Source: Chloroflexota bacterium
GTDB lineage: Bacteria; Chloroflexota; Chloroflexia; Chloroflexales; Herpetosiphonaceae
Length of the DNA stretch: 64,000 nt
Assembly: GCA_020161265.1 (NCBI GenBank)
Contig: JAIUOC010000011.1
Location: 62,001 to 126,000, forward strand
Reading direction: 5' to 3'
In this document: positions 4,231 through 33,407 of the stretch, piece by piece
How the letters are laid out: each line of letters starts with the position of its first letter
Position numbering within the stretch: position 1 is the stretch's first letter
Position numbers and translations under genes: made by a program
The notes under the pieces: model-generated
What the model was told of the DNA's origin: nothing
Seen by the model: the letters and a program-made list of their open reading frames with translations, nothing else
Database searches by the model: none

Positions 4231-6372
4231 TTACTTCACAACTTGGGGAATAAACAATTGATAGGGCAGTGGTTCAGGCTCAGCAGCAAGCTGAAAGCTG
4301 GCCACTCCTAAACTTGGGTTTGCGCCAATATGGCTAAAATTACCGCTCAAATAGAGATAGTTTTCAGTAATTGCCATGTGTTCAACTGTGCCGTTTGGGG
4401 TTTGGCTTGGGGCTTGCCAGCTATTGCCATTCCAGCGCACAATGCTGCCCAGCTGTTGCTCACCGACTTTGCTAAATGCTCCGCCAACATATAAATAGCG
4501 ATCATTGATGTTGGCAAGTTGCAACGGCGCACCATCAAACTCAAATACCATGCTATTGCCAGTGTTTTCGAGCCGATGCAACTGATTGCCGTTGGTAAAA
4601 TACAGCTGATTGCGCCAGGTTACAAATTGCGGCATCGAGCCATTGCTTTGCACAAACAACCCAGTAAAATCGACCCAAGCAGTACCATTCCAAGTGTCAA
4701 TATCGATATCCCACCAATCATGGTTTTGGGTGATCATCAGCGAATAGATGCGATTATTGGCATAATAGATCTGGCGAAAATTGGTGTTTAGTCCTAATTC
4801 ACGCCATTCAGTACCATTCAGTGCCACCGCCCCACTGATTGATTGGCTGTTAATCATCGTTATGCCATTAGCCAAAAGCTGGGTTCCCGAAAGTGTCCAG
4901 GTGGTTGTCTGGCCAATTAATTGCAAGGGAGCAGTCAACGCCCCAGTCGAATCAAATTGCCATAGCGAACTGCTCAATGAACCTGAGGTTTGATACGGAT
5001 AGGGGTACGCCAAATAGGCGCGATCATCACTGGTGGCGAATAGGCTAGCCATCCCCTGCAATGCGTGGCTCGTTTGCCAGGTTTGACCATCCCACTGCTT
5101 GAGCACATTCGGCCAATTGGGTTTGATAATTGGCTGACCTTGAACGCCGGTTATTTCATCGAGCCGTGGATAAACACTGGTGCTGGCAAGTGGCGTAAGG
5201 GTTGTGCCATTCCAATGCACCAATTGCACGGCGCTGCCATCCACTTCAAAATTACCAGCAAGATACAACCCATTGGCATTGCCAACAACTGTAGTAATAG
5301 AGTTGATCGTCATTGGCAGATTGACCAATTGCCATTGATTGCCAACTAAACGCCAGAGATCGCTGATAGTGTAGGCATATAAATCGTTGCTTTGCGCCAC
5401 ACCAAGCACAAATTCATCGATCCAGCTGCCAAACGCCTGCCACTGATTAGTATTCCAACGATAAATCATGGTTTGCCGCGGATCATAGTTATTGGCCCAG
5501 GTATAGAGCGTCGTCCCAATTCGCCCAATTTGATCACGGGCGGCATTTGGGCCTGGCAAGCTGGAGTTTTGCCAGGTTGTGCCATTCCATAAGCCTAAAC
5601 CTTGAATTGAGGTTTGATTGACGCGGCTTACACTCCCAGATGCAAAAAGCGTATTGGGAATCGCATCGAGATCGCTGATTACGCCATTAAAATCGCCAAA
5701 CTCGCCAAAGCCAGTCGGTCGCCAAAAAGCTGTGCCATGGGCGGCTAGGCCATTAAACGTATCAAAATTGCCACCGAGATACAGCGTATCGCTCAGGACT
5801 TCAATATCATAGACTTGCGAAATAATGTTGTTGCGATATGAATCGTTGATGCCACTGATGCCACTGCCAAATGCTTGAAATTGGCTGCCATCCCAACGGG
5901 CAAGGCCATTCATGGGCTGGCCCGCCAATCGGCGAAAGCGCCCAGCCACCACCAATTGGTTTTGATAGCTATCCATGGCATTGATCGTATCGACATCGTT
6001 TGGTTGCAAGCCATAGCCTTGCCAAGTTGTGCCATTCCATGCGGCTAGGCCATTAAACAATTGCCCATTCAGGTAATTGAATTTACCAGCGACATATAAA
6101 CGATTATTGGCATCAAGATGCAACTTGGTGATCGTGCCAGCGGTCGCTAAACTATTGCCAAATTCATTATTCCATGTGCCACTAATCACGCTGCTGCTGC
6201 TGAGTGGCGTAATTTGATTGAGTTCAATTGGCGCTAGTTGGGCGGTGCTAGCCCCAAGCTGTTTAGCAGTGACTTTTGCAGGTAGCGTTTGGCTGGCAAA
6301 ACTACTGATTATTGCGCCAAGGAGCAGCACAATTAAGCCCCAACGTCCTTTAAAAAACCGTCTCTTCTGCAT
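4231..6372 (-). CDS. Secreted repeat protein, beta-propeller-like (paralogue 1)
   Basis: This 713-residue protein begins with a signal peptide (MQKRRFFKGRWGLIVLLLGAIIS, cleavage near SFAS or later). The mature part consists of irregular repeats with signatures such as LAAWNGTTWQ, LYVAGKFNYL and GLARWDGSQF, spaced about 40-55 residues. They resemble delta-60 or kelch-like blades, and a propeller fold is inferred. The function is unknown; extracellular binding is plausible. ATG 6372 was chosen because GAGGAA lies six bases upstream; an upstream in-frame start at 6396 would block the signal peptide. The next gene (6521-8674) and the gene at the right edge are paralogues with the same ending style, QLFIPQVVK. 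Confidence 0.8.
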   Translation of the reverse strand: MQKRRFFKGRWGLIVLLLGAIISSFASQTLPAKVTAKQLGASTAQLAPIELNQITPLSSSSVISGTWNNEFGNSLATAGTITKLHLDANNRLYVAGKFNYLNGQLFNGLAAWNGTTWQGYGLQPNDVDTINAMDSYQNQLVVAGRFRRLAGQPMNGLARWDGSQFQAFGSGISGINDSYRNNIISQVYDIEVLSDTLYLGGNFDTFNGLAAHGTAFWRPTGFGEFGDFNGVISDLDAIPNTLFASGSVSRVNQTSIQGLGLWNGTTWQNSSLPGPNAARDQIGRIGTTLYTWANNYDPRQTMIYRWNTNQWQAFGSWIDEFVLGVAQSNDLYAYTISDLWRLVGNQWQLVNLPMTINSITTVVGNANGLYLAGNFEVDGSAVQLVHWNGTTLTPLASTSVYPRLDEITGVQGQPIIKPNWPNVLKQWDGQTWQTSHALQGMASLFATSDDRAYLAYPYPYQTSGSLSSSLWQFDSTGALTAPLQLIGQTTTWTLSGTQLLANGITMINSQSISGAVALNGTEWRELGLNTNFRQIYYANNRIYSLMITQNHDWWDIDIDTWNGTAWVDFTGLFVQSNGSMPQFVTWRNQLYFTNGNQLHRLENTGNSMVFEFDGAPLQLANINDRYLYVGGAFSKVGEQQLGSIVRWNGNSWQAPSQTPNGTVEHMAITENYLYLSGNFSHIGANPSLGVASFQLAAEPEPLPYQLFIPQVVK

Positions 6373-6520
6373 GGTTAGTTCCTCGTACACAATCAATAAA
6401 CTAGGCTCGATCCTACCATTGCTGCGCTGGTTGAAAGATCGTCGGTAGGGCTGATTTTATACTCAAAGCAACGCGCTCGATTTAAACCAAACGCGTTGCA
6501 ATCGGTGCGATCAATTGAGA

Positions 6521-8674
6521 TTACTTCATTGCTTGGGGGATAAATTGGCGAAAGCTAGGATTCGCCGCAACCCCGTTAATCACAAAACTGGCAACACCCA
6601 GTGATGTAGTTGCGCCAACATGGGTAAAACTTCCAGCAATCTGAATTAAATCTGAGGTGACTGCCAATTGGCTGATCGCTCCATTTGGTACATCGGCAAG
6701 GCCTTGCCAACTGGTTCCATTCCAACGTGCCAATGGGCCAACGGCTTGATTATTGACTTGGTTAAAGCGCCCAGCAACATAGAGATAATCAGCAGTGCTG
6801 CGCAACACGAGCGGCATATCATCGAAACTCGCAACTGACACTAAATCTGTGCTATTAAAATCAAAACGCCGCAGATCATTGCGATAGAGAAAATAGAGTT
6901 CGCCATTCCAAACTGCAATTTGCATGGTTAATCGCTGATCAAATTGTTGCCATGCGGTCAGATATTGCCAAGCTGTGCCATCCCACACTGACATTTCAAT
7001 AATCCACGAAGCCCGCTCGGCCTCGGTACGGATTGAATAGATCTGTTGATCGGTAACATAGACATTGCCATGGGCATAGCTAGGAATGAATGATCGCCAT
7101 TGATTGCCGTTGATCGCAATTGTTCCAGCAATTGGTTGATTGTTGATTGTGCCTGAATGCATACTTGCTAAGACATCTGTCCCCGAAATTGTCCAAGTAA
7201 CGTTATAGGCATTTAAGGGAACTGGCGCACTCAGGCTGCCATCTAGCTGCACTTGCCAAATTGCACTTGCTAAATTTGAGGTGGTCGTAAATGGGCTACT
7301 GCCAACTAAATAGGTATTGTCGGCGGTGGTCAACAGTTGAGTTCCATAAGGCAACCGACGCAATTGCTGCCAAATCGAGTTGTTCCAAACCTGAAGCATC
7401 GATTGGGCTCTAGCGATAATCAACGGCTGCCCATTAAGATTGGCAATATCTTGGGCATAGCCTTGTTGGATCGTCGTTGCCAAGTTGGTGATTGTGTTGC
7501 CATCCCAAAAAATCAAATGACTTGCTTGGCCATTGACCGTAAAACTGCCTGCGAGGTAAATTCCAGCGCTGCTAGCTTCGATCGCCGTAATAGTTTGAAT
7601 TGCCATGGGCAGATCAAGGCTGCGCCAACCAGCTGCCGTGCGTTGCCAGAGCTTGTCGTTGGTAGCGCTATACAATTGCCCATTCAATTGAATAAGATCA
7701 CGGGCTGAGCCAGTAATCACGGAGCTATCGACAACCCAATCGTTGGCATCCCAATGATAAAACTGGGTAAGATAGGGTTGTTGATTGATATATTTGCGTA
7801 GATAGAAGGTATTATCAAATGTGTGAAGCTCTTGGTAAAAACGGACACCTTCTGGGATTGGGGGATTGCTCCAAACACCATTTTGGCGTAGCGCAAAATA
7901 ATCAACCCCAATATCATTAATTGAGAGTAATTCGCCCGATAGCAGAATTGCATTATCAATTGCCGCAAATTGATAGAGTGAACTATCAATATCTGCAACT
8001 TCATAATAACCGCTTGGCCGCCAAGCAAGCAGTGAATTGACTGCTAAATTATTGAATTGAGAAAAATTACCACTGATATACAACGTATCAGTCACAACAT
8101 CAAGATCATAGATTTTAGGTCGATTCGAATAATCAAAAAAATCGCTGGTGCCACGAAAACCCGTTCCAAACGCTTCGAATGCTTGGCCATTCCAACGGGC
8201 GATCCCGTTCATGGTTTGGCCCGCCAATTTGTCAAAACTGCCACCAACAATCAATTGATCGTTGTAGGTAGTCATGGCGAGAATTGAGCCTGGATCGTTA
8301 GGGTGCAAGCCATAGCCTTGCCATGTGTTGCCATCCCACGCGGCCAGCCCATTGAATTCGTGCCCATTCAGATAATTGAATGAGCCGGTGACATACAGCC
8401 TATCGTTGGCATCGACATACAGTTTGCTGATAGTGCCTGGGCTTTGCAAGCTATTCTGAATAGTGGGATTCCATGTGCCTGTGATGACGCTGCTGGTGGT
8501 TAAGGGCGAGGATTGGATGGTTGTTGGTTCAAAAGCCCTGTCTGTCGCTGAGCTGAGCGGCTGATTTGGTTGAGATTGGGGCTGTTGGGCTTTGACTGTG
8601 CCCAGATTGAGCAGGATACCAATTAAGATTAAATAAAATCCGATTCTGTTTCCGACGATCCGTTTCCGCGCCAT
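6521..8674 (-). CDS. Secreted repeat protein, beta-propeller-like (paralogue 2)
   Basis: At 717 residues, it is collinear with the 4231-6372 protein over its whole length. It has an N-terminal signal peptide (ends near LGTVKAQ), the same order of LYVTGSFNYLNG, LAAWDGNTWQGYG and ARWNGTSWQ repeats, and the C-terminal ending RQFIPQAMK. The two genes are in tandem on the same strand 148 bases apart, a clear tandem duplication. The conserved hydrophobic tail that ends both proteins may be a processing or secretion signal; that is inference. No catalytic motif was seen. The role is unknown and probably extracellular. Confidence 0.8.
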   Translation of the reverse strand: MARKRIVGNRIGFYLILIGILLNLGTVKAQQPQSQPNQPLSSATDRAFEPTTIQSSPLTTSSVITGTWNPTIQNSLQSPGTISKLYVDANDRLYVTGSFNYLNGHEFNGLAAWDGNTWQGYGLHPNDPGSILAMTTYNDQLIVGGSFDKLAGQTMNGIARWNGQAFEAFGTGFRGTSDFFDYSNRPKIYDLDVVTDTLYISGNFSQFNNLAVNSLLAWRPSGYYEVADIDSSLYQFAAIDNAILLSGELLSINDIGVDYFALRQNGVWSNPPIPEGVRFYQELHTFDNTFYLRKYINQQPYLTQFYHWDANDWVVDSSVITGSARDLIQLNGQLYSATNDKLWQRTAAGWRSLDLPMAIQTITAIEASSAGIYLAGSFTVNGQASHLIFWDGNTITNLATTIQQGYAQDIANLNGQPLIIARAQSMLQVWNNSIWQQLRRLPYGTQLLTTADNTYLVGSSPFTTTSNLASAIWQVQLDGSLSAPVPLNAYNVTWTISGTDVLASMHSGTINNQPIAGTIAINGNQWRSFIPSYAHGNVYVTDQQIYSIRTEAERASWIIEMSVWDGTAWQYLTAWQQFDQRLTMQIAVWNGELYFLYRNDLRRFDFNSTDLVSVASFDDMPLVLRSTADYLYVAGRFNQVNNQAVGPLARWNGTSWQGLADVPNGAISQLAVTSDLIQIAGSFTHVGATTSLGVASFVINGVAANPSFRQFIPQAMK

Positions 8675-8880
8675 TGCTGAACTCCAATAGGCATCTTCAT
8701 GCCACTAGCTATTCCTAGCCAGGTGTAGTTGGACTATAACATATCGACTACGACTACTACCTTGCCTCGTAATTAGTATAGAAAGTCTGTCAATGATTTT
8801 ATTAAAACCGCTAAATTTTATTACGTCAATTATTAATAAAATAGCCAGCTCTATTTAATTCATTATGTTAGGTTAATTAA

Positions 8881-8912
8881 ATAAAAACAGCCTGTGAATG
8901 TAACAGGCTGTT
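8881..8912 (-). terminator. Terminator after the AAA+ ATPase gene
   Basis: AACAGCCTGT at 8886-8895 pairs with ACAGGCTGTT at 8903-8912 around a seven-base loop. On the minus strand it is followed by TTTTTAT, 24 bases after the ATPase stop. Confidence 0.85.
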
Positions 8913-8935
8913 CAATAATGATCTGACGAAACTGA

Positions 8936-10546
8936 TTAATCGAGTCGAACTTTGGCACCGAAGTTTTTGGCTTCTTTGCTGACAAAGTACGTGCCACACG
9001 CTGCATCTATCAAATCGGGATTGAAGGTGACTTGTTCCATATTATATTTGGCGATGCTGATCATCTGATCGAGAATATCGCGCGGTTGGCACATACGGAA
9101 AGGCCGATCATCCGGCTTGTACCATTTTTCCACCAAATAATCTAAGCCCTTGGGATCGAGGTTAATTTTGCGACCTTTGCACACCAACGACCAAATTTGT
9201 CGCCATTGCGATTCATCGGGGTCGCGCACCTCAATTTTGAATTTGATCCGACGCAAGAAAGCTTCGTCAGCCACTTGACTAGGGTCAAGGTTGGTCGAAA
9301 AAATTAGCAATTGATCGAATGGCACTTCGATTTTTTGGCCAGTGATCGTGGTCAAATAATCGTAGCGCTTTTCGAGCGGCACAATCCAGCGGTTGAGCAA
9401 GTCCATTGGGCGACATTGTTGGCGACCAAAGTCGTCGATCAAGAAAATCCCGCCGTTGGCTTTCATCTGGAAGGGTGCTTCGTAAAAACGCCCAGTTTCG
9501 TTGAAAGTCAAATCGAGCGCTTCGAGGGTCAGTTCGCCCCCGACCACCACCACAGGCCGTTTGATTTTGGCCCAACGTAAATCATAGCTTGAAGTGCCGA
9601 TATTGGCCTCTTTATCGACCAACGTATGCACAATGCTATCGTAAACTTTGATAATTTGACCATCAGCATCAATCGCATAGGGCACGAAAATATCATCGCC
9701 CATCAGGCGGGTAATCCGTTCGGCGATACTGGTTTTGCCATTGCCAGGATAGCCAAACAAGAAGATCGACGCGCCCGAATTGACCGCTGGCCCAACTTCA
9801 TTCAACACTTGATCGGTGATAATCAAATCGCTAAAGGCTTTGCGAATATTGCGCCGCGTGATCACCATGTTTTTGATCGTTTGCGCCTTGACTGATTCTA
9901 AAAACTGCTCGAATGGAACTGGAGCAGGCCCGCTGTAATTGCTTTTCTTCATGGCATCTTCGGCAGCTTGCGAGCCACGCGGAGTCAAAATATATTCGTA
10001 ATTGGTATCGCCAAAGCCACGTTGCCCAGCAATGTCGATATATTCCGAGTTGCGCATTTGGGTGATGACTGGATCGACCACACTATAGAACAAGCGCACT
10101 TCTTGGGCTAGCTCCATACCAGTGACCCGCGAACGGTTATAAATCACCCGCAGCAATTGGTCCTGAATTTGGGTTCGATTCAGGCCAGTTTCTTCAATTG
10201 TAGTTGGTACTTTGGGGTGATAGCTATTCCCCGATGGGGCTGAGCCGTCATCGTTCGGCACATCCCCCCCAAGTACCCGCGCACCACTCAACTTGCCGCT
10301 GGCTTGGGCCTCGGCCACCAGCGCATCAAGCTGTTGTTTGTGCATATTTAAGTGGCGCGTTGCCTCATAGTCGTTCTGCTCACGCGCTTCCTTCAAGCAA
10401 TCATACAGGGCACGAGCAACGGCATACTTAATTCCATCGACATACATATGATGCAAATATTCGCCCGGTCGCACGTAGCAGTCGGGTGTATGATCATTGC
10501 GGGCTTTCATTTCGTCATACGAACGCGCATCGAGTAAAAATCGCAT
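8936..10546 (-). CDS. AAA+ ATPase with N-terminal helix-turn-helix-like region
   Basis: This 536-residue protein has a Walker A motif GYPGNGKTS near residue 270, a Walker B motif GIFLIDDFGRQ near 370, a sensor-1 strand LLIFSTNLDP, and an arginine-rich FLRRIKFKIE segment that fits an arginine finger. It is a MoxR- or ClpX-like AAA+ module without a protease or HNH part. Residues about 120-215 (TIEETGLNRTQIQDQLLRVI, LAQEVRL) look like a winged helix. The role cannot be assigned; remodelling of a partner complex is a guess. AAGGGATGTGAGG just upstream supports ATG 10546. The gene has its own promoter and terminator. Confidence 0.8.
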   Translation of the reverse strand: MRFLLDARSYDEMKARNDHTPDCYVRPGEYLHHMYVDGIKYAVARALYDCLKEAREQNDYEATRHLNMHKQQLDALVAEAQASGKLSGARVLGGDVPNDDGSAPSGNSYHPKVPTTIEETGLNRTQIQDQLLRVIYNRSRVTGMELAQEVRLFYSVVDPVITQMRNSEYIDIAGQRGFGDTNYEYILTPRGSQAAEDAMKKSNYSGPAPVPFEQFLESVKAQTIKNMVITRRNIRKAFSDLIITDQVLNEVGPAVNSGASIFLFGYPGNGKTSIAERITRLMGDDIFVPYAIDADGQIIKVYDSIVHTLVDKEANIGTSSYDLRWAKIKRPVVVVGGELTLEALDLTFNETGRFYEAPFQMKANGGIFLIDDFGRQQCRPMDLLNRWIVPLEKRYDYLTTITGQKIEVPFDQLLIFSTNLDPSQVADEAFLRRIKFKIEVRDPDESQWRQIWSLVCKGRKINLDPKGLDYLVEKWYKPDDRPFRMCQPRDILDQMISIAKYNMEQVTFNPDLIDAACGTYFVSKEAKNFGAKVRLD

Positions 10547-29710: not shown

Positions 29711-29800
29711 ATACAAAAAATTTGCTCCATTATATGCGAAAGTCGGCTCCATGCCGTGCGCTCGGTAAACGAGCCTAGCTATAATGGAGTAATTTTATTT
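29711..29800 (+). ncRNA. Candidate structured small RNA
   Basis: From the predicted start the RNA folds into a closed shape: an outer stem TTGCTCCATTATA (29722-29734) with TATAATGGAGTAA (29780-29792, one GU pair), then inside it CGGC-TCCAT-GCCG (29744-29756) and GCTCG-GTAAA-CGAGC. This gives a three-way junction of about 70 bases, followed by TTTTATTT, which could end transcription. The outer stem overlaps the last codons of the convergent DUF3800 gene, so pairing with that mRNA is possible. It is not a tRNA: no T-loop or acceptor geometry. I recognise no known RNA family. A shared bidirectional terminator is the simplest alternative. Confidence 0.4.
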
Positions 29801-30555
29801 AACTCAAAATTATTTTTTCGATCATAAAATTTTTCACGTTCTCTTGCTTTTGTATCGTATAAATCGAAAATGAGACTAATTTTTGAACGCACAATATCAA
29901 TATAACGAATTTCACGATAGATAAATGCTCGCTGAACTGCCCAATTCATATAATCAATAATTGATAAACAAGGCTCAGCACTAGGAGTTTGCGCATAAAT
30001 CTGGCGTTGATTATCTATTGTACGATTATTTTTTTGCTCAAACTTGGCTACTGCTTGATTGATTGCTTCATCAAGTCGTTCTTGGCGAGTACTGGAACCA
30101 CGTTGTGAAAAATAAATATGATTTGTGTGATGCAGATGTAAATTATTTTGAAATAATAGGCTCACTAGGTGATGATAAAACTCGCCTTCCTTCGCTTGAA
30201 AGTTATTCCGAAAAACTTTTTCTACTTTTCGCGCAACCACAAATTGCGCACTAAAATCCATCGTGGCAAGTTCTTCAAAGAAACTGTCACGAATCTTGGC
30301 AACATCATTCTTTGCATGAAAAGCCTTCTTCGTTTTAGCTAATGATGGAATTTGTTGGTATTCAGGATTATTCACAACAGATTGATGAAATTGCCAAACC
30401 TGGTTGCGTAAAAGTGAAGGATTATTGGTTTTAATAAAGCCAAGCAGTAATATTTTAGAGCATCCCTGTTCGCCAACAATCAAGTTGCCACGTTTATCAT
30501 AAAACGTTGGATCACCAGATTCATCCACGAAAAAATAACAATCATTTGGCTTCAT
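29779..30555 (-). CDS. DUF3800 domain protein
   Basis: The 258-residue protein opens with CYFFVDESGDP, the hallmark of DUF3800, and carries the later CLSIIDYMNWAVQRAF segment of the same family. These conserved acids resemble an RNase H-like nuclease arrangement, but activity is unproven; family members often lie in mobile or defence contexts. The gene is visibly richer in A+T than its neighbours and its protein is rich in Asn, Lys and Gln, suggesting horizontal transfer. AGGGTGG five bases upstream favours ATG 30555 over GTG 30564. A promoter and possible small RNA face it from the 3' side. Confidence 0.85.
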   Translation of the reverse strand: MKPNDCYFFVDESGDPTFYDKRGNLIVGEQGCSKILLLGFIKTNNPSLLRNQVWQFHQSVVNNPEYQQIPSLAKTKKAFHAKNDVAKIRDSFFEELATMDFSAQFVVARKVEKVFRNNFQAKEGEFYHHLVSLLFQNNLHLHHTNHIYFSQRGSSTRQERLDEAINQAVAKFEQKNNRTIDNQRQIYAQTPSAEPCLSIIDYMNWAVQRAFIYREIRYIDIVRSKISLIFDLYDTKAREREKFYDRKNNFELNKITPL

Positions 30556-30600
30556 GCCGGCCACCCTAGCTAGTTTGATCGTTCAATATCATACCTAAAA

Positions 30601-30672: not shown

Positions 30673-31592
30673 TTACAAGAAATCGATTTCGCAGGCACCT
30701 GACATACAGGCCAATTCTTGGGCTGCCGTGGTCAAATCTTCTTCTTCGTAGCGATAGACTTTCGAGAAGTCGATTGGCGGGAATTCTGCCGCCAGTTTTT
30801 CGTATTCTTCGCGGCCAATCTCCACATACGGCATTTGGGCATAATTGGCATCAAACGATGGCAAGAAGGCCATCCCTCCAATTACCTCGCGGTTTTCCCA
30901 AATCCACTTCATGACTTCCATTACTTCATCGGGCTTGTAGGTAATCGTCACCGATGGATTGTGCTCAGTCCAATTGAGTTTGTTTTGCAACCAATAGTTA
31001 CATTGCTCAATCGCCCCACGGCTGTTACGCGTGATGGCATTTTCGGGCGCTTTGACTGGGAAGTGCACCACCCAGGTCGTGGCATCATCACGGGTTTGGC
31101 CATTTTCAGGGTCCATTGGCACGCCAGCATCACGCAACACTTTGTAAATTGGTGAGTGGGTGCTGACCCGCACGTTGCGAATGTAATAGGGTGCCCAGCG
31201 TGAGTGCAAACCTGAAGCACAATCGAGCAGTTGGCTGCTGTTGCCACTTGGCTTGACACAGGTGATCGATACCGATTGATTGATGCCCAACTTTTCGGCA
31301 TACTCGCGGTTGACTTCGACCGCAATTTCTAGCAAACGGCGCTGAACTTCGGGATCTTGCGCGACTTTGCTATCCATTTGGCCAGTGATGTCTACGCCGA
31401 GCAAGCGTTCTTCTTGGCAGTTTTCCGACCACTGAGGCCGCAAGCCTGGGAAGTGGGTCGCCATCGATTGAATCGTACCGATAATCGTAGCAACCTCGAC
31501 TTTTTCGCGCAATGTTTCAAAGGTATCGTCGGCGCGGGCGACCGCTGCCGTCAAATTACAAAACTGGTAGGGCCGCAGAATAATTTCGCCAC
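30673..31592 (-). CDS. Class II ribonucleotide reductase, 3' part (after the insertion)
   Basis: This segment encodes the last 305 residues of the reductase plus two bases of the split cysteine codon. It begins GEIILRPYQFCNL, directly continuing the NPC motif of the upstream part, includes SGNSSQLLDCASGLH and VRVSTHSPI of the catalytic barrel, and ends CMSGACEIDFL, where two cysteines probably re-reduce the active site. Without removal of the 228-base insertion this part would need its own start; the only in-frame candidates (TTG near 31626) lie inside the insertion. It is read most simply as a 3' exon. A strong terminator follows at 30601-30650. Confidence 0.9.
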
Positions 31593-31820
31593 CAAAACTG
31601 TTACCTGCTCTTGCGAGCCGCCACAACCATTTCTGTTGTGGTCTGCACCTTCAATCGGTTATACGTGCAGTTCAGAGTGCGTCACCAACTCGACTGAGTT
31701 GCCCCTTGTCACTCGTTCGCGGCTTCCCTTGCGGGCGATCCGACGACGTTACCTACTTCTAGGCTTCCATCGTTATTCAGGGTTTTCCTAGGTTGTCACC
31801 AACTTAGGCCGCTAGGCTCA
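31593..31820 (-). ncRNA. 228-base structured insertion inside the RNR catalytic codon (intron or mobile RNA)
   Basis: Deleting exactly these bases joins ...AATCCG-T and GT-GGCGAA, restoring Asn-Pro-Cys-Gly-Glu; no other cut point gives the Cys. The RNA strand is dense in hairpins: CCUAAGUUG-GUGA-CAACCUAGG, CCC-GCAA-GGG, GAGUG...CACUC enclosing CAACUC-AGUC-GAGUUG, CUGCAC...GUGCAG, CCACAAC...GUUGUGG and GCUC-GCAA-GAGC, plus a possible pseudoknot GUCGG/CCGAU. The exon ends in U and the insertion in G, and GCGG nine bases in can pair with exon CCGU, as in group I introns. No group I P7 core or group II domain V was found. An omega-RNA/HEARO-like mobile RNA fits size and style. Confidence 0.7.
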
Positions 31821-33168
31821 ACGGATTCGTGCCAAATTCGGCGGGCTTACGACGGCTTGGGCGCATATCGATCGCGCTTTGGCGATTGAAGATGCCAGGT
31901 TCGCCGCGACCAGACTTAACCATCGCCAAGACTTGCTCGATAATTTCGAGTTGGGTCAAGCCACTTGCTGGCCAAACTGCCGAGTTGTTGGCGTTCCAGC
32001 GTTGGCTATTTTCGCGGTCGAAATCACCATCTTTGGCGGTCAGCATATCGTGATCATCATAATCGAACAGACTGATCATTGCTGTGCGACGCACGCCACC
32101 ACTGACCGCTGCATTGCCAACCGAGCACATAATGTCGTGGGCATCGATTGAGCGCAGGAATGAACCTTGGCGAGCCAAAACCCGTGAGCGAGCAAAATCG
32201 AGCATTTGACGGAACGGCTCAGGCCCAGAGGCACGACCACCTTTGATCCGCAAGGGAGCGCCAGCAGGCCGTAATTGCGAAAGATCAAAGGTTACATCAT
32301 TGCCAGCGAACCAGGTTTCTAAGCCAAAGCGCAGTGCTTCAGCCCAGCCCTCAGCCGAATCTTCGACCACATATTGGCTAGCTGGTGCGCCAGATTGACG
32401 CTTGACCCGTGGGAATTGCTCAATGTATTTATGTTCGACTGAGAAGCCCACGCCACAACCGCTCATCGAAATAATCAGCGCCTCAACAAACGAGTCGATG
32501 CTATCGACTGGTAAATACGAGCAGTTATAAATGGCAATATTGTTGCGGCGAGCAGCTGGTCCAGCCATCGCCAACAAACGCATCGAAGGCATCGCCCGCA
32601 TTTCGAGAATAGCTTGGCGCACGCGGTTGTAATCGGCATCGTCAAGTTTATTGTCAGAAATTTCGCGCAAGAAATTGACCGAGCGATCGACTGTTTCGAT
32701 CCAAGTTTCGCGGCGACCTAAATCGTAATCGAAGCGCGAGTATTTATCAAAAAATTGAAATTTTTGCAACGGCGAGGGGAAATATTGATCCGATTCGGCA
32801 AACGCATGGCGAATCGCTTCGGGAACAGGGCGTTGCTCACGCTTTTTGGCATGCTCGGCGCGATAGAGAATATAGCTCTTGGCGGCTTCGAACTCGCCAG
32901 CAGCTTGCAACATCACCTCAACCGTATCTTGCACGGCCTCGACGGTTGGGGTCGTGGTATATTTGGCAGCCAAAATATTGACCACGCGCTGGGCCAATTC
33001 GGCAACGGTGGTATGCGGTTGACGGCCTAAACCAGCAAAACAGCGGGTCAAAGCGCGTTCAATCCGGGCCACATCAAACGTCACCTCACGACCATCACGC
33101 TTGATGATTGTGGTTGGCGGCGCTACTTGGCGGTCATCGAGCGAGGTCAACGTGACCTGTTCCGTCAT
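31821..33168 (-). CDS. Class II (B12-dependent) ribonucleotide reductase, 5' part
   Basis: The first 449 residues of an adenosylcobalamin-type ribonucleotide reductase, which makes deoxyribonucleotides. An ATP-cone lies at about 20-110 (IIKRDGREVTFDVARIERAL), followed by the barrel with NIAIYNCSYLPVDSIDSF and SGCGVGFSVE. The joined protein would have about 755 residues, normal for class II. It is class II by its NPCGE motif and absence of a small-subunit gene. Unspliced, this part ends after five foreign residues (LSLAA) and lacks the thiyl-radical Cys450. ATG 33168 has AAAGGA seven bases upstream; TTG 33174 is also in frame. Two NrdR boxes control the promoter. Confidence 0.92.
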
Positions 33169-33407
33169 AACCAAGTCCTTTCAAACATCCAAAATAAAGA
33201 CAACAAAAAATTAAGGGTGCAATCAAAATGTGATTGTTCCCATTGTTGGAGTAAGTATTGCTTGGTTGCGTGTGCATTTAACGCAGAGGCGCAGAGCAAT
33301 CGATTTAATTTGGTTGCATTGGGGCAACCATGAATACCTAGAGAGTGAGCCTTCCCATTAAAAAACAGCAAGTAGAGAGTGCTGGCTCTTACTTACTGTA
33401 CAAACTC

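What the first reader, a model, noticed from the sequence alone, without database searches (positions are those of the whole stretch)
31593..31820. A 228-base structured RNA splits the catalytic cysteine codon of class II ribonucleotide reductase
Seen: the RNR frame stops after EFGTNP and resumes at GEIILRPYQF. Only one cut restores the family motif: T|GT around 31593-31820 gives NPCGE. The interrupted codon is that of the thiyl-radical cysteine, so without removal the enzyme is dead. The insertion has no ORF, is full of GNRA-capped hairpins, ends in G after an exon U, and has GCGG that can pair with exon CCGU. Known: RNR genes at this motif often carry inteins and sometimes group I introns. 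Odd: no group I P7 or group II domain V is visible, and the size, GUGA loops and pseudoknot-like pairing recall HEARO/omega-RNA of IscB elements, known in other Chloroflexota. It may be a new minimal self-splicing intron or a mobile guide-RNA element behaving like one.
Basis: partly seen in the sequence, partly recalled or inferred. Interest (0 to 1): 0.92.

Follow-up and report, generated by a model that had tools for sequence, protein, structure and literature searches.

The report
Tiny hidden group I intron

Summary
On the minus strand, 31820-31593 interrupts the Cys codon (T|GT) of a monomeric B12-dependent RNR. Aligned with the solved 1L1L enzyme, that cysteine is C408. Three congeners have an exact empty site. 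Eleven same-site copies (Chloroflexota, two phages) and related introns give a P3/P7 pseudoknot with compensatory changes in 33 of 48 core pairs, an invariant U·G at the 5' splice site, an invariant P7 G-C pair and a terminal G. At three kinds of insertion site the internal guide co-varies with the 5' exon. This is a group I intron, 228 nt, with no homing endonuclease. Rfam finds nothing at E≤10, but related introns that match the same covariance model also match RF00028. Sister introns of 183-252 nt split cyanobacterial tRNA-Asn; joining the exons gives a perfect tRNA-Asn(GUU), and no uninterrupted copy was found. Exon 2 evolves at dN/dS about 0.02 or less, so the gene is expressed past the insertion. 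HEARO/omega-RNA and group II are not supported. Verdict: a real, divergent, compact group I lineage on essential sites, a new variant of a known kind. Splicing is inferred, not shown.

The parts
31821..33171 (-). 5' exon of the class II (B12-dependent, monomeric) ribonucleotide reductase, ending in the first base of the catalytic Cys codon
   Evidence: Pfam ATP-cone, RNR_Alpha and a sub-threshold RNR-II insertion domain; intact orthologue in G001 aligns to PDB 1L1L
30673..31592 (-). 3' exon of the same RNR gene, starting with bases 2-3 of the Cys codon (GT GGC GAA)
   Evidence: reading frame GEIILRPYQF...; dN/dS about 0.006-0.02 between intron-bearing strains
31593..31820 (-). 228-nt group I intron; no ORF; in-frame stop after 7 codons
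   Evidence: exact empty sites; covariation; relatives at the same codon
31821..31824 (-). P1 5' strand: exon CCGU, U-G wobble at the splice site
   Evidence: pairs with 31809-31812; CCGU/GCGG, CUGU/GCAG and CUCU/GGAG at different insertion sites
31809..31812 (-). P1 3' strand / internal guide sequence GCGG
31787..31808 (-). P2 hairpin capped by a GNRA loop (GUGA/GCGA)
   Evidence: compensatory changes in P2 and its inner stem
31779..31782 (-). P3 5' strand CCCU
   Evidence: pairs with 31702-31705 across P7 (pseudoknot); CCCU/GGGG or AGGG, CCUC/GAGG, CUCC/GGAG
31743..31773 (-). P4-P5 with J4/5 = GAA and J5/4 = AA
   Evidence: ACGAUG/CGUCGU versus ACGGAG/CUCCGU and others
31720..31742 (-). P6/P6a, loop GCAA
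   Evidence: all three P6 pairs co-vary
31710..31714 (-). P7 5' strand GAGUG (guanosine-binding G-C pair and adjacent A-U invariant)
   Evidence: GAGUG/CACUC, GAGCG/CGCUC, GACUA/UAGUC, GAUCA/UGAUC
31702..31705 (-). P3 3' strand GGGG
31687..31700 (-). P8 hairpin AACUC..GAGUU
   Evidence: co-varies
31675..31679 (-). P7 3' strand CACUC, preceded by J8/7 (GGUGACG)
31643..31670 (-). P9 hairpin CUGCAC..GUGCAG
   Evidence: co-varies once phage and tRNA introns are added
31607..31641 (-). P9.1 (CCACAA..UUGUGG around CAGAAAUG) and P9.2 (GCUC GCAA GAGC): 3' module shared with introns that Rfam recognises
31593..31593 (-). terminal guanosine (omega G)
   Evidence: invariant in all RNR-site copies

Best explanation
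It is a minimal, divergent group I intron. The pre-mRNA folds into the P3-P9 / P4-P6 catalytic core. The internal guide GCGG holds the 5' exon CCGU with a U-G wobble at the splice site. A guanosine bound in P7 attacks after that U; the freed exon U then attacks after the terminal G, joining T|GT into the Cys codon and restoring NPCGE. An in-frame stop 7-8 codons into the intron keeps ribosomes out of the core. It has no endonuclease of its own, so it spreads by some other route (a free-standing endonuclease or recombination after transfer, phages being plausible carriers). Shown: architecture, covariation, same-site distribution, empty sites, selection on exon 2. Inferred: the chemistry, autonomy of splicing, the role of the stop codon, the route of spread.
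For: P1 with U-G, P3/P7 pseudoknot, P4-P6 with A-rich J4/5, P8, P9 and omega G are all present; 99.1% of cells paired, 35/58 pairs compensatory, 0/500 shuffles as high, slid controls 34-40% paired. With tRNA and phage introns added: 98.4%, 33/48 core pairs. Guide and 5' exon co-vary over three kinds of site. All nine full-strength copies in 158 genomes of the class sit at the same RNR Cys codon, in two RNR subfamilies, as do copies in two phages. Bridge to accepted group I: introns matched by R1/R2 also match Rfam RF00028 (L258 85.7 and 53 bits; L259/G465 65.9 and 58.7; L035, L039, L239, L243). Sister introns restore tRNA-Asn(GUU) exactly with no intact copy found. Exon 2 dN/dS is 0.006-0.02 at dS 0.30-0.46 between intron-bearing strains.
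Against: Rfam RF00028 gives no match at E<=10. The published group I subgroup models could not be run. No transcript data. P10 is short (two to three pairs starting 3 nt into exon 2) and only suggestive. P3 and P7 are short (4 and 5 bp).
Confidence: 0.94

Rival explanations
1. It belongs to an already described but Rfam-poor group I subgroup (such as ID or IE), so it is a new member rather than a new lineage. This is a rival about classification, not about the splicing mechanism.
For: PMC11878797 reports that ID and IE introns align poorly to the Rfam model because none is in its seed; PMC3984707 lists ID among bacterial subgroups.
Against: No subgroup model was available here, so this could not be tested; no ID or IE example was compared.
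Confidence: 0.4
2. A dead insertion that inactivates a dispensable RNR gene.
For: The genome has an intact class I NrdA/NrdB, so loss could be tolerated.
Against: Exon 2 is under strong purifying selection in intron-bearing strains; the intron differs at only 4-5 of 228 bases between strains whose exons differ more; RNA pairs are conserved across families.
Confidence: 0.03
3. A HEARO/omega-RNA mobile guide element of the IscB type.
Against: No Rfam match at E<=10; no IscB gene beside it; the secondary structure is the group I core.
Confidence: 0.01
4. A new, non-group-I self-splicing ribozyme class.
For: Not recognised by any of 4227 Rfam families.
Against: Every core group I helix is present in the right order, and related sequences (L157, L299, L272, L273) carry the canonical P7 GACUA/UAGUC.
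Confidence: 0.02

Closest known systems
Group I introns (Rfam RF00028), including those in bacterial and phage RNR genes (Bacillus and SPbeta nrdE, Twort nrdE, cyanobacterial RNR)
   Same: P1 with U-G, P3/P7 pseudoknot, P4-P6, P7-P9, terminal G, insertion at conserved residues of an essential gene (PMC3984707; PMC3653736)
   Different: only 228 nt, no endonuclease ORF, altered P7 sequence (GAGYG/CRCUC), not detected by RF00028; sits in the catalytic Cys codon itself
Group I intron at the GANMG site of the RNR gene in G065 and G060 (L035, L039)
   Same: neighbouring position in the same gene family; same 3' P9.1/P9.2 module (CAGAAAUG...GUAACA)
   Different: Rfam recognises it (55 and 49 bits); canonical P7; longer
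RNR inteins
   Same: same catalytic Cys codon, inserted directly before the Cys of NPCGE in G007 and G008
   Different: protein splicing, about 1.1 kb, unrelated chemistry; intein cut lies one base before the intron cut
Cyanobacterial tRNA group I introns (Leu, fMet, Arg, Gly, Lys; PMC5733544)
   Same: anticodon-loop group I introns in cyanobacteria
   Different: the sister introns found here split tRNA-Asn(GUU), are 183-252 nt and are not detected by RF00028

Membership tests
Group I intron | P1 between 5' exon and internal guide with U-G wobble at the splice site | tested here: met
   invariant U-G in 15/15; other P1 pairs co-vary with the exon at three kinds of site
Group I intron | P3/P7 pseudoknot | tested here: met
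   P3 3/4 and P7 3/5 pairs with compensatory change in the ten closest copies; helices in group I order
Group I intron | P4-P6 domain with A-rich J4/5 | tested here: met
   P4, P5 and P6 co-vary; J4/5 GAA, J5/4 AA
Group I intron | guanosine-binding G-C pair in P7 | tested here: met
   G-C and adjacent A-U invariant in 15/15; its role is from established knowledge
Group I intron | intron ends in G | tested here: met
   all RNR-site copies and all three tRNA introns
Group I intron | P10 pairing of guide with 3' exon | tested here: inconclusive
   RCC/GGY in most copies, compensated in phage KLEP7 (GC/GC), UAAU pairing in two tRNA introns; short, read by eye
Group I intron | guanosine-dependent two-step transesterification | not testable with these tools
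   needs an in vitro or in vivo splicing assay
Group I intron | match to Rfam RF00028 (a detection model, not a defining feature) | tested here: not met
   no match at E<=10, but relatives matched by R1/R2 do match
HEARO / omega-RNA (IscB) | match to the family model; IscB gene adjacent | tested here: not met
   no Rfam match; neighbouring ORFs hold no IscB
Group II intron | GUGYG 5' end, domain V, ends in AY | tested here: not met
   starts UGAGC, ends UUUUG; no Rfam match

The most novel reading that the evidence does not exclude
These introns form a distinct, unrecognised subgroup of group I introns: roughly 180-250 nt, mostly without endonucleases, many sharing the P9.1/P9.2 module, invisible to the Rfam model and so likely missing from databases built on it, and spread across Chloroflexota, Cyanobacteria, Bacillota and phages in essential targets (RNR catalytic Cys codon, tRNA-Asn anticodon, RtcB). 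The 183-nt tRNA-Asn form would be among the smallest complete natural group I ribozymes (size comparison from memory).
Probability: 0.5. Interest if true: 0.68.

Novelty: new variant of a known kind. Interest (0 to 1): 0.58.

Why it matters
The standard group I model misses this lineage, and a recent 42,459-intron database was seeded from that model (PMC11835236), so such introns are probably under-counted and their genes annotated as broken: phage KLEP7's RNR is deposited as two CDS. The same catalytic codon is split by this intron in some genomes and by an intein in others, and the intron is present or absent between close congeners, which makes gain, loss and intron/intein competition at one codon directly testable. 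A complete core in 183-228 nt is also attractive for ribozyme structure and engineering.

Tried and rejected
Rfam scans of the window, the intron alone and relatives found no known family for the intron itself; the few matches are chance-level. A second copy in the own genome: none. Linkage to the downstream DUF3800 gene (29779-30564): it is also present in intronless G002 and G004, so it is not a partner endonuclease. My first hand-drawn bracket string was out of register and was replaced. The P3 register was shifted by one column after comparing G005 and G016. Pattern scans of genome and viral contigs with the P1 motif gave mostly chance hits; only those confirmed by the covariance model were kept. 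A protein search for more viral RNRs returned only the same contig. Flank homogenisation (co-conversion) around the intron: not seen, exon differences near the site are not reduced. Phylum of Sessilibacter (Pseudomonadota): no match in 398 genomes at E<=1e-10, under strict filters, so a weak negative. The original report of a group I intron with an IS in a bacterial RNR gene was not held.

Full report
OBSERVATION. On the minus strand the class II RNR gene runs from about 33171 to 30673 and is interrupted at 31820-31593 by 228 nt. The 5' exon ends ...AAT CCG T, the 3' exon starts GT GGC GAA; joined they give NPCGE. Because exon 1 ends in T and the insertion in G, and the insertion starts with T while exon 2 starts with G, no other boundary gives the same product. 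The empty site exists in three congeners (G001, G002, G004: AATCCATGYGG), while two others (G003, G005) carry the insertion at 4-5 differences in 228. The intact RNR of G001 aligns to the solved adenosylcobalamin-dependent reductase 1L1L, and the interrupted cysteine falls on residue 408, which by established knowledge is the thiyl-radical cysteine of that enzyme. It is the only copy in the 6.04-Mb genome. The genome also encodes an intact class I NrdA and NrdB.

STRUCTURE. A relative in another family of the order (G016, 75% identity, full length) and one in a different RNR subfamily (G011) allowed a comparative structure. Helices in order: P1 (exon CCGU with GCGG, U-G at the splice site), P2, P3 5' strand, P4-P5, P6, P7 5' strand, P3 3' strand, P8, P7 3' strand, P9, P9.1, P9.2, terminal G. 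That is the group I order with the P3/P7 pseudoknot. On five sequences, 97.6% of cells pair with 21 compensatory pairs. On ten, 99.1% and 35 of 58, with no shuffle of 500 as high and slid controls at 34-40% paired. The alignments and one search were fitted to the model and lean towards its structure; the MAFFT alignment behind one search was not, and it shows the same. Two phage copies and two tRNA introns carry the usual form, another GAUCA/UGAUC, while the first G-C and second A-U pairs of P7 never change in 15 sequences. In all 11 RNR-site copies the exon frame meets a stop 7-8 codons into the intron, just past the guide sequence.

DISTRIBUTION. A covariance model (R1) searched in 158 genomes of the class gave nine full-strength matches (235-296 bits), every one at the same Cys codon and phase, in two RNR subfamilies (...RPYQF-like and ...EQPLLPYD-like). 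Two phages have it at the same codon: an uncultivated 104-kb contig (L157) and Pseudaeromonas phage KLEP7 (OM654377.1), where the RNR is annotated as two CDS. Wider searches with model R2 found related introns in other sites and phyla: cyanobacterial tRNA genes (127-130 bits), RtcB genes of cyanobacteria and of the phylum of Anaerospora, and phage-like genes. None of 398 genomes of the phylum of Sessilibacter matched at E<=1e-10, though strict filters make that a weak negative.

LINK TO ACCEPTED GROUP I INTRONS. RF00028 does not detect the RNR-site copies or the tRNA-Asn copies. But introns that the R models do find are also found by RF00028: L258 (85.7 bits by R2, 53 by RF00028), G465 (65.9 and 58.7), L035 and L039 at another RNR position, L239 and L243 in viral contigs. 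Part of that overlap is the shared 3' module (CAGAAAUG hairpin, GUAACA); the core comparison includes L258, which pairs throughout. A point from the literature: subgroups ID and IE are absent from the Rfam seed and align poorly (PMC11878797), so a missed known subgroup is a live alternative to a new one.

EVIDENCE THAT IT IS SPLICED. (a) Between strains that both carry the intron, exon 2 evolves at dN/dS 0.006-0.02 with dS 0.30-0.46, as in intronless strains; an untranslated exon would not. (b) In three cyanobacterial genomes the sister introns (183, 185, 252 nt) lie between U35 and U36 of tRNA-Asn; joined exons are called tRNA-Asn(GUU) by ARAGORN, and a pattern search at up to two mismatches found only tRNA-Lys-like sequences and no uninterrupted tRNA-Asn (assemblies may be incomplete). 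(c) The guide sequence changes with the 5' exon: GCGG for CCGU, GCAG for CUGU, GGAG for CUCU. These are indirect; no transcript was examined.

MECHANISM. The best reading is ordinary group I splicing: guide-held 5' exon, guanosine in P7 attacking after the U, exon attack after the terminal G. How it moves is open. The intron has no endonuclease; the cyanobacterial RtcB relatives have a two-motif LAGLIDADG-like ORF just after the matched region, and the phage L157 RNR lies near a NUMOD3-domain protein typical of homing endonucleases. Patchy presence among congeners and occurrence in phages suggest transfer, but exon flanks show no co-conversion signal, apart from CCG for CCA in the Pro codon, which P1 pairing needs.

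COMPARISON AND NOVELTY. RNR genes are known targets of group I introns and inteins (PMC3984707, PMC3653736), so the kind is known. New here, as far as the tools reach: a compact, Rfam-silent lineage tied to the catalytic Cys codon, sharing that codon with inteins in G007 and G008, and with tRNA-Asn relatives that a paper on cyanobacterial tRNA introns does not list (PMC5733544). HEARO/omega-RNA and group II are not supported. I rate it a new variant of a known kind.

Noticed in passing
L272 (reverse strand), L273, L274: Group I introns of 183, 185 and 252 nt inside tRNA-Asn(GUU) genes in the phylum of a Xenococcaceae cyanobacterium; not detected by RF00028, and no uninterrupted tRNA-Asn found in those genomes.
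   Followed up: partly
L020 and L023 (G008, G007), NPCGE site: Inteins of about 1.1 kb inserted directly before the same catalytic cysteine that the intron splits in relatives.
   Followed up: partly
L035 (G065, Oscillochloris sp. RM1_1_4): One RNR gene with three interveners: an Rfam-recognised group I intron at GANMG, the mini-intron at NPC, and an intein after a downstream cysteine.
   Followed up: no
L015 (G004): Intein-like insertion after SGGVRRC in exon 1 of the RNR of an intronless congener.
   Followed up: no
L275-L279, L297, L298: Rfam-silent related introns in RtcB (RNA ligase) genes at the LGGG motif; several cyanobacterial ones are followed by a two-motif LAGLIDADG-like ORF.
   Followed up: partly
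L239 (IMGVR_UViG_3300047576_000046), about 5448-9759: Phage contig with several group I introns in close succession, three or four called by RF00028.
   Followed up: no
L157 4076-4723 (-): NUMOD3-domain protein about 480 bases beyond the end of the intron-bearing phage RNR; candidate free-standing homing endonuclease.
   Followed up: partly
window 29779-30564 (-): DUF3800 gene directly downstream of the RNR, patchy among congeners and not tied to intron presence.
   Followed up: yes
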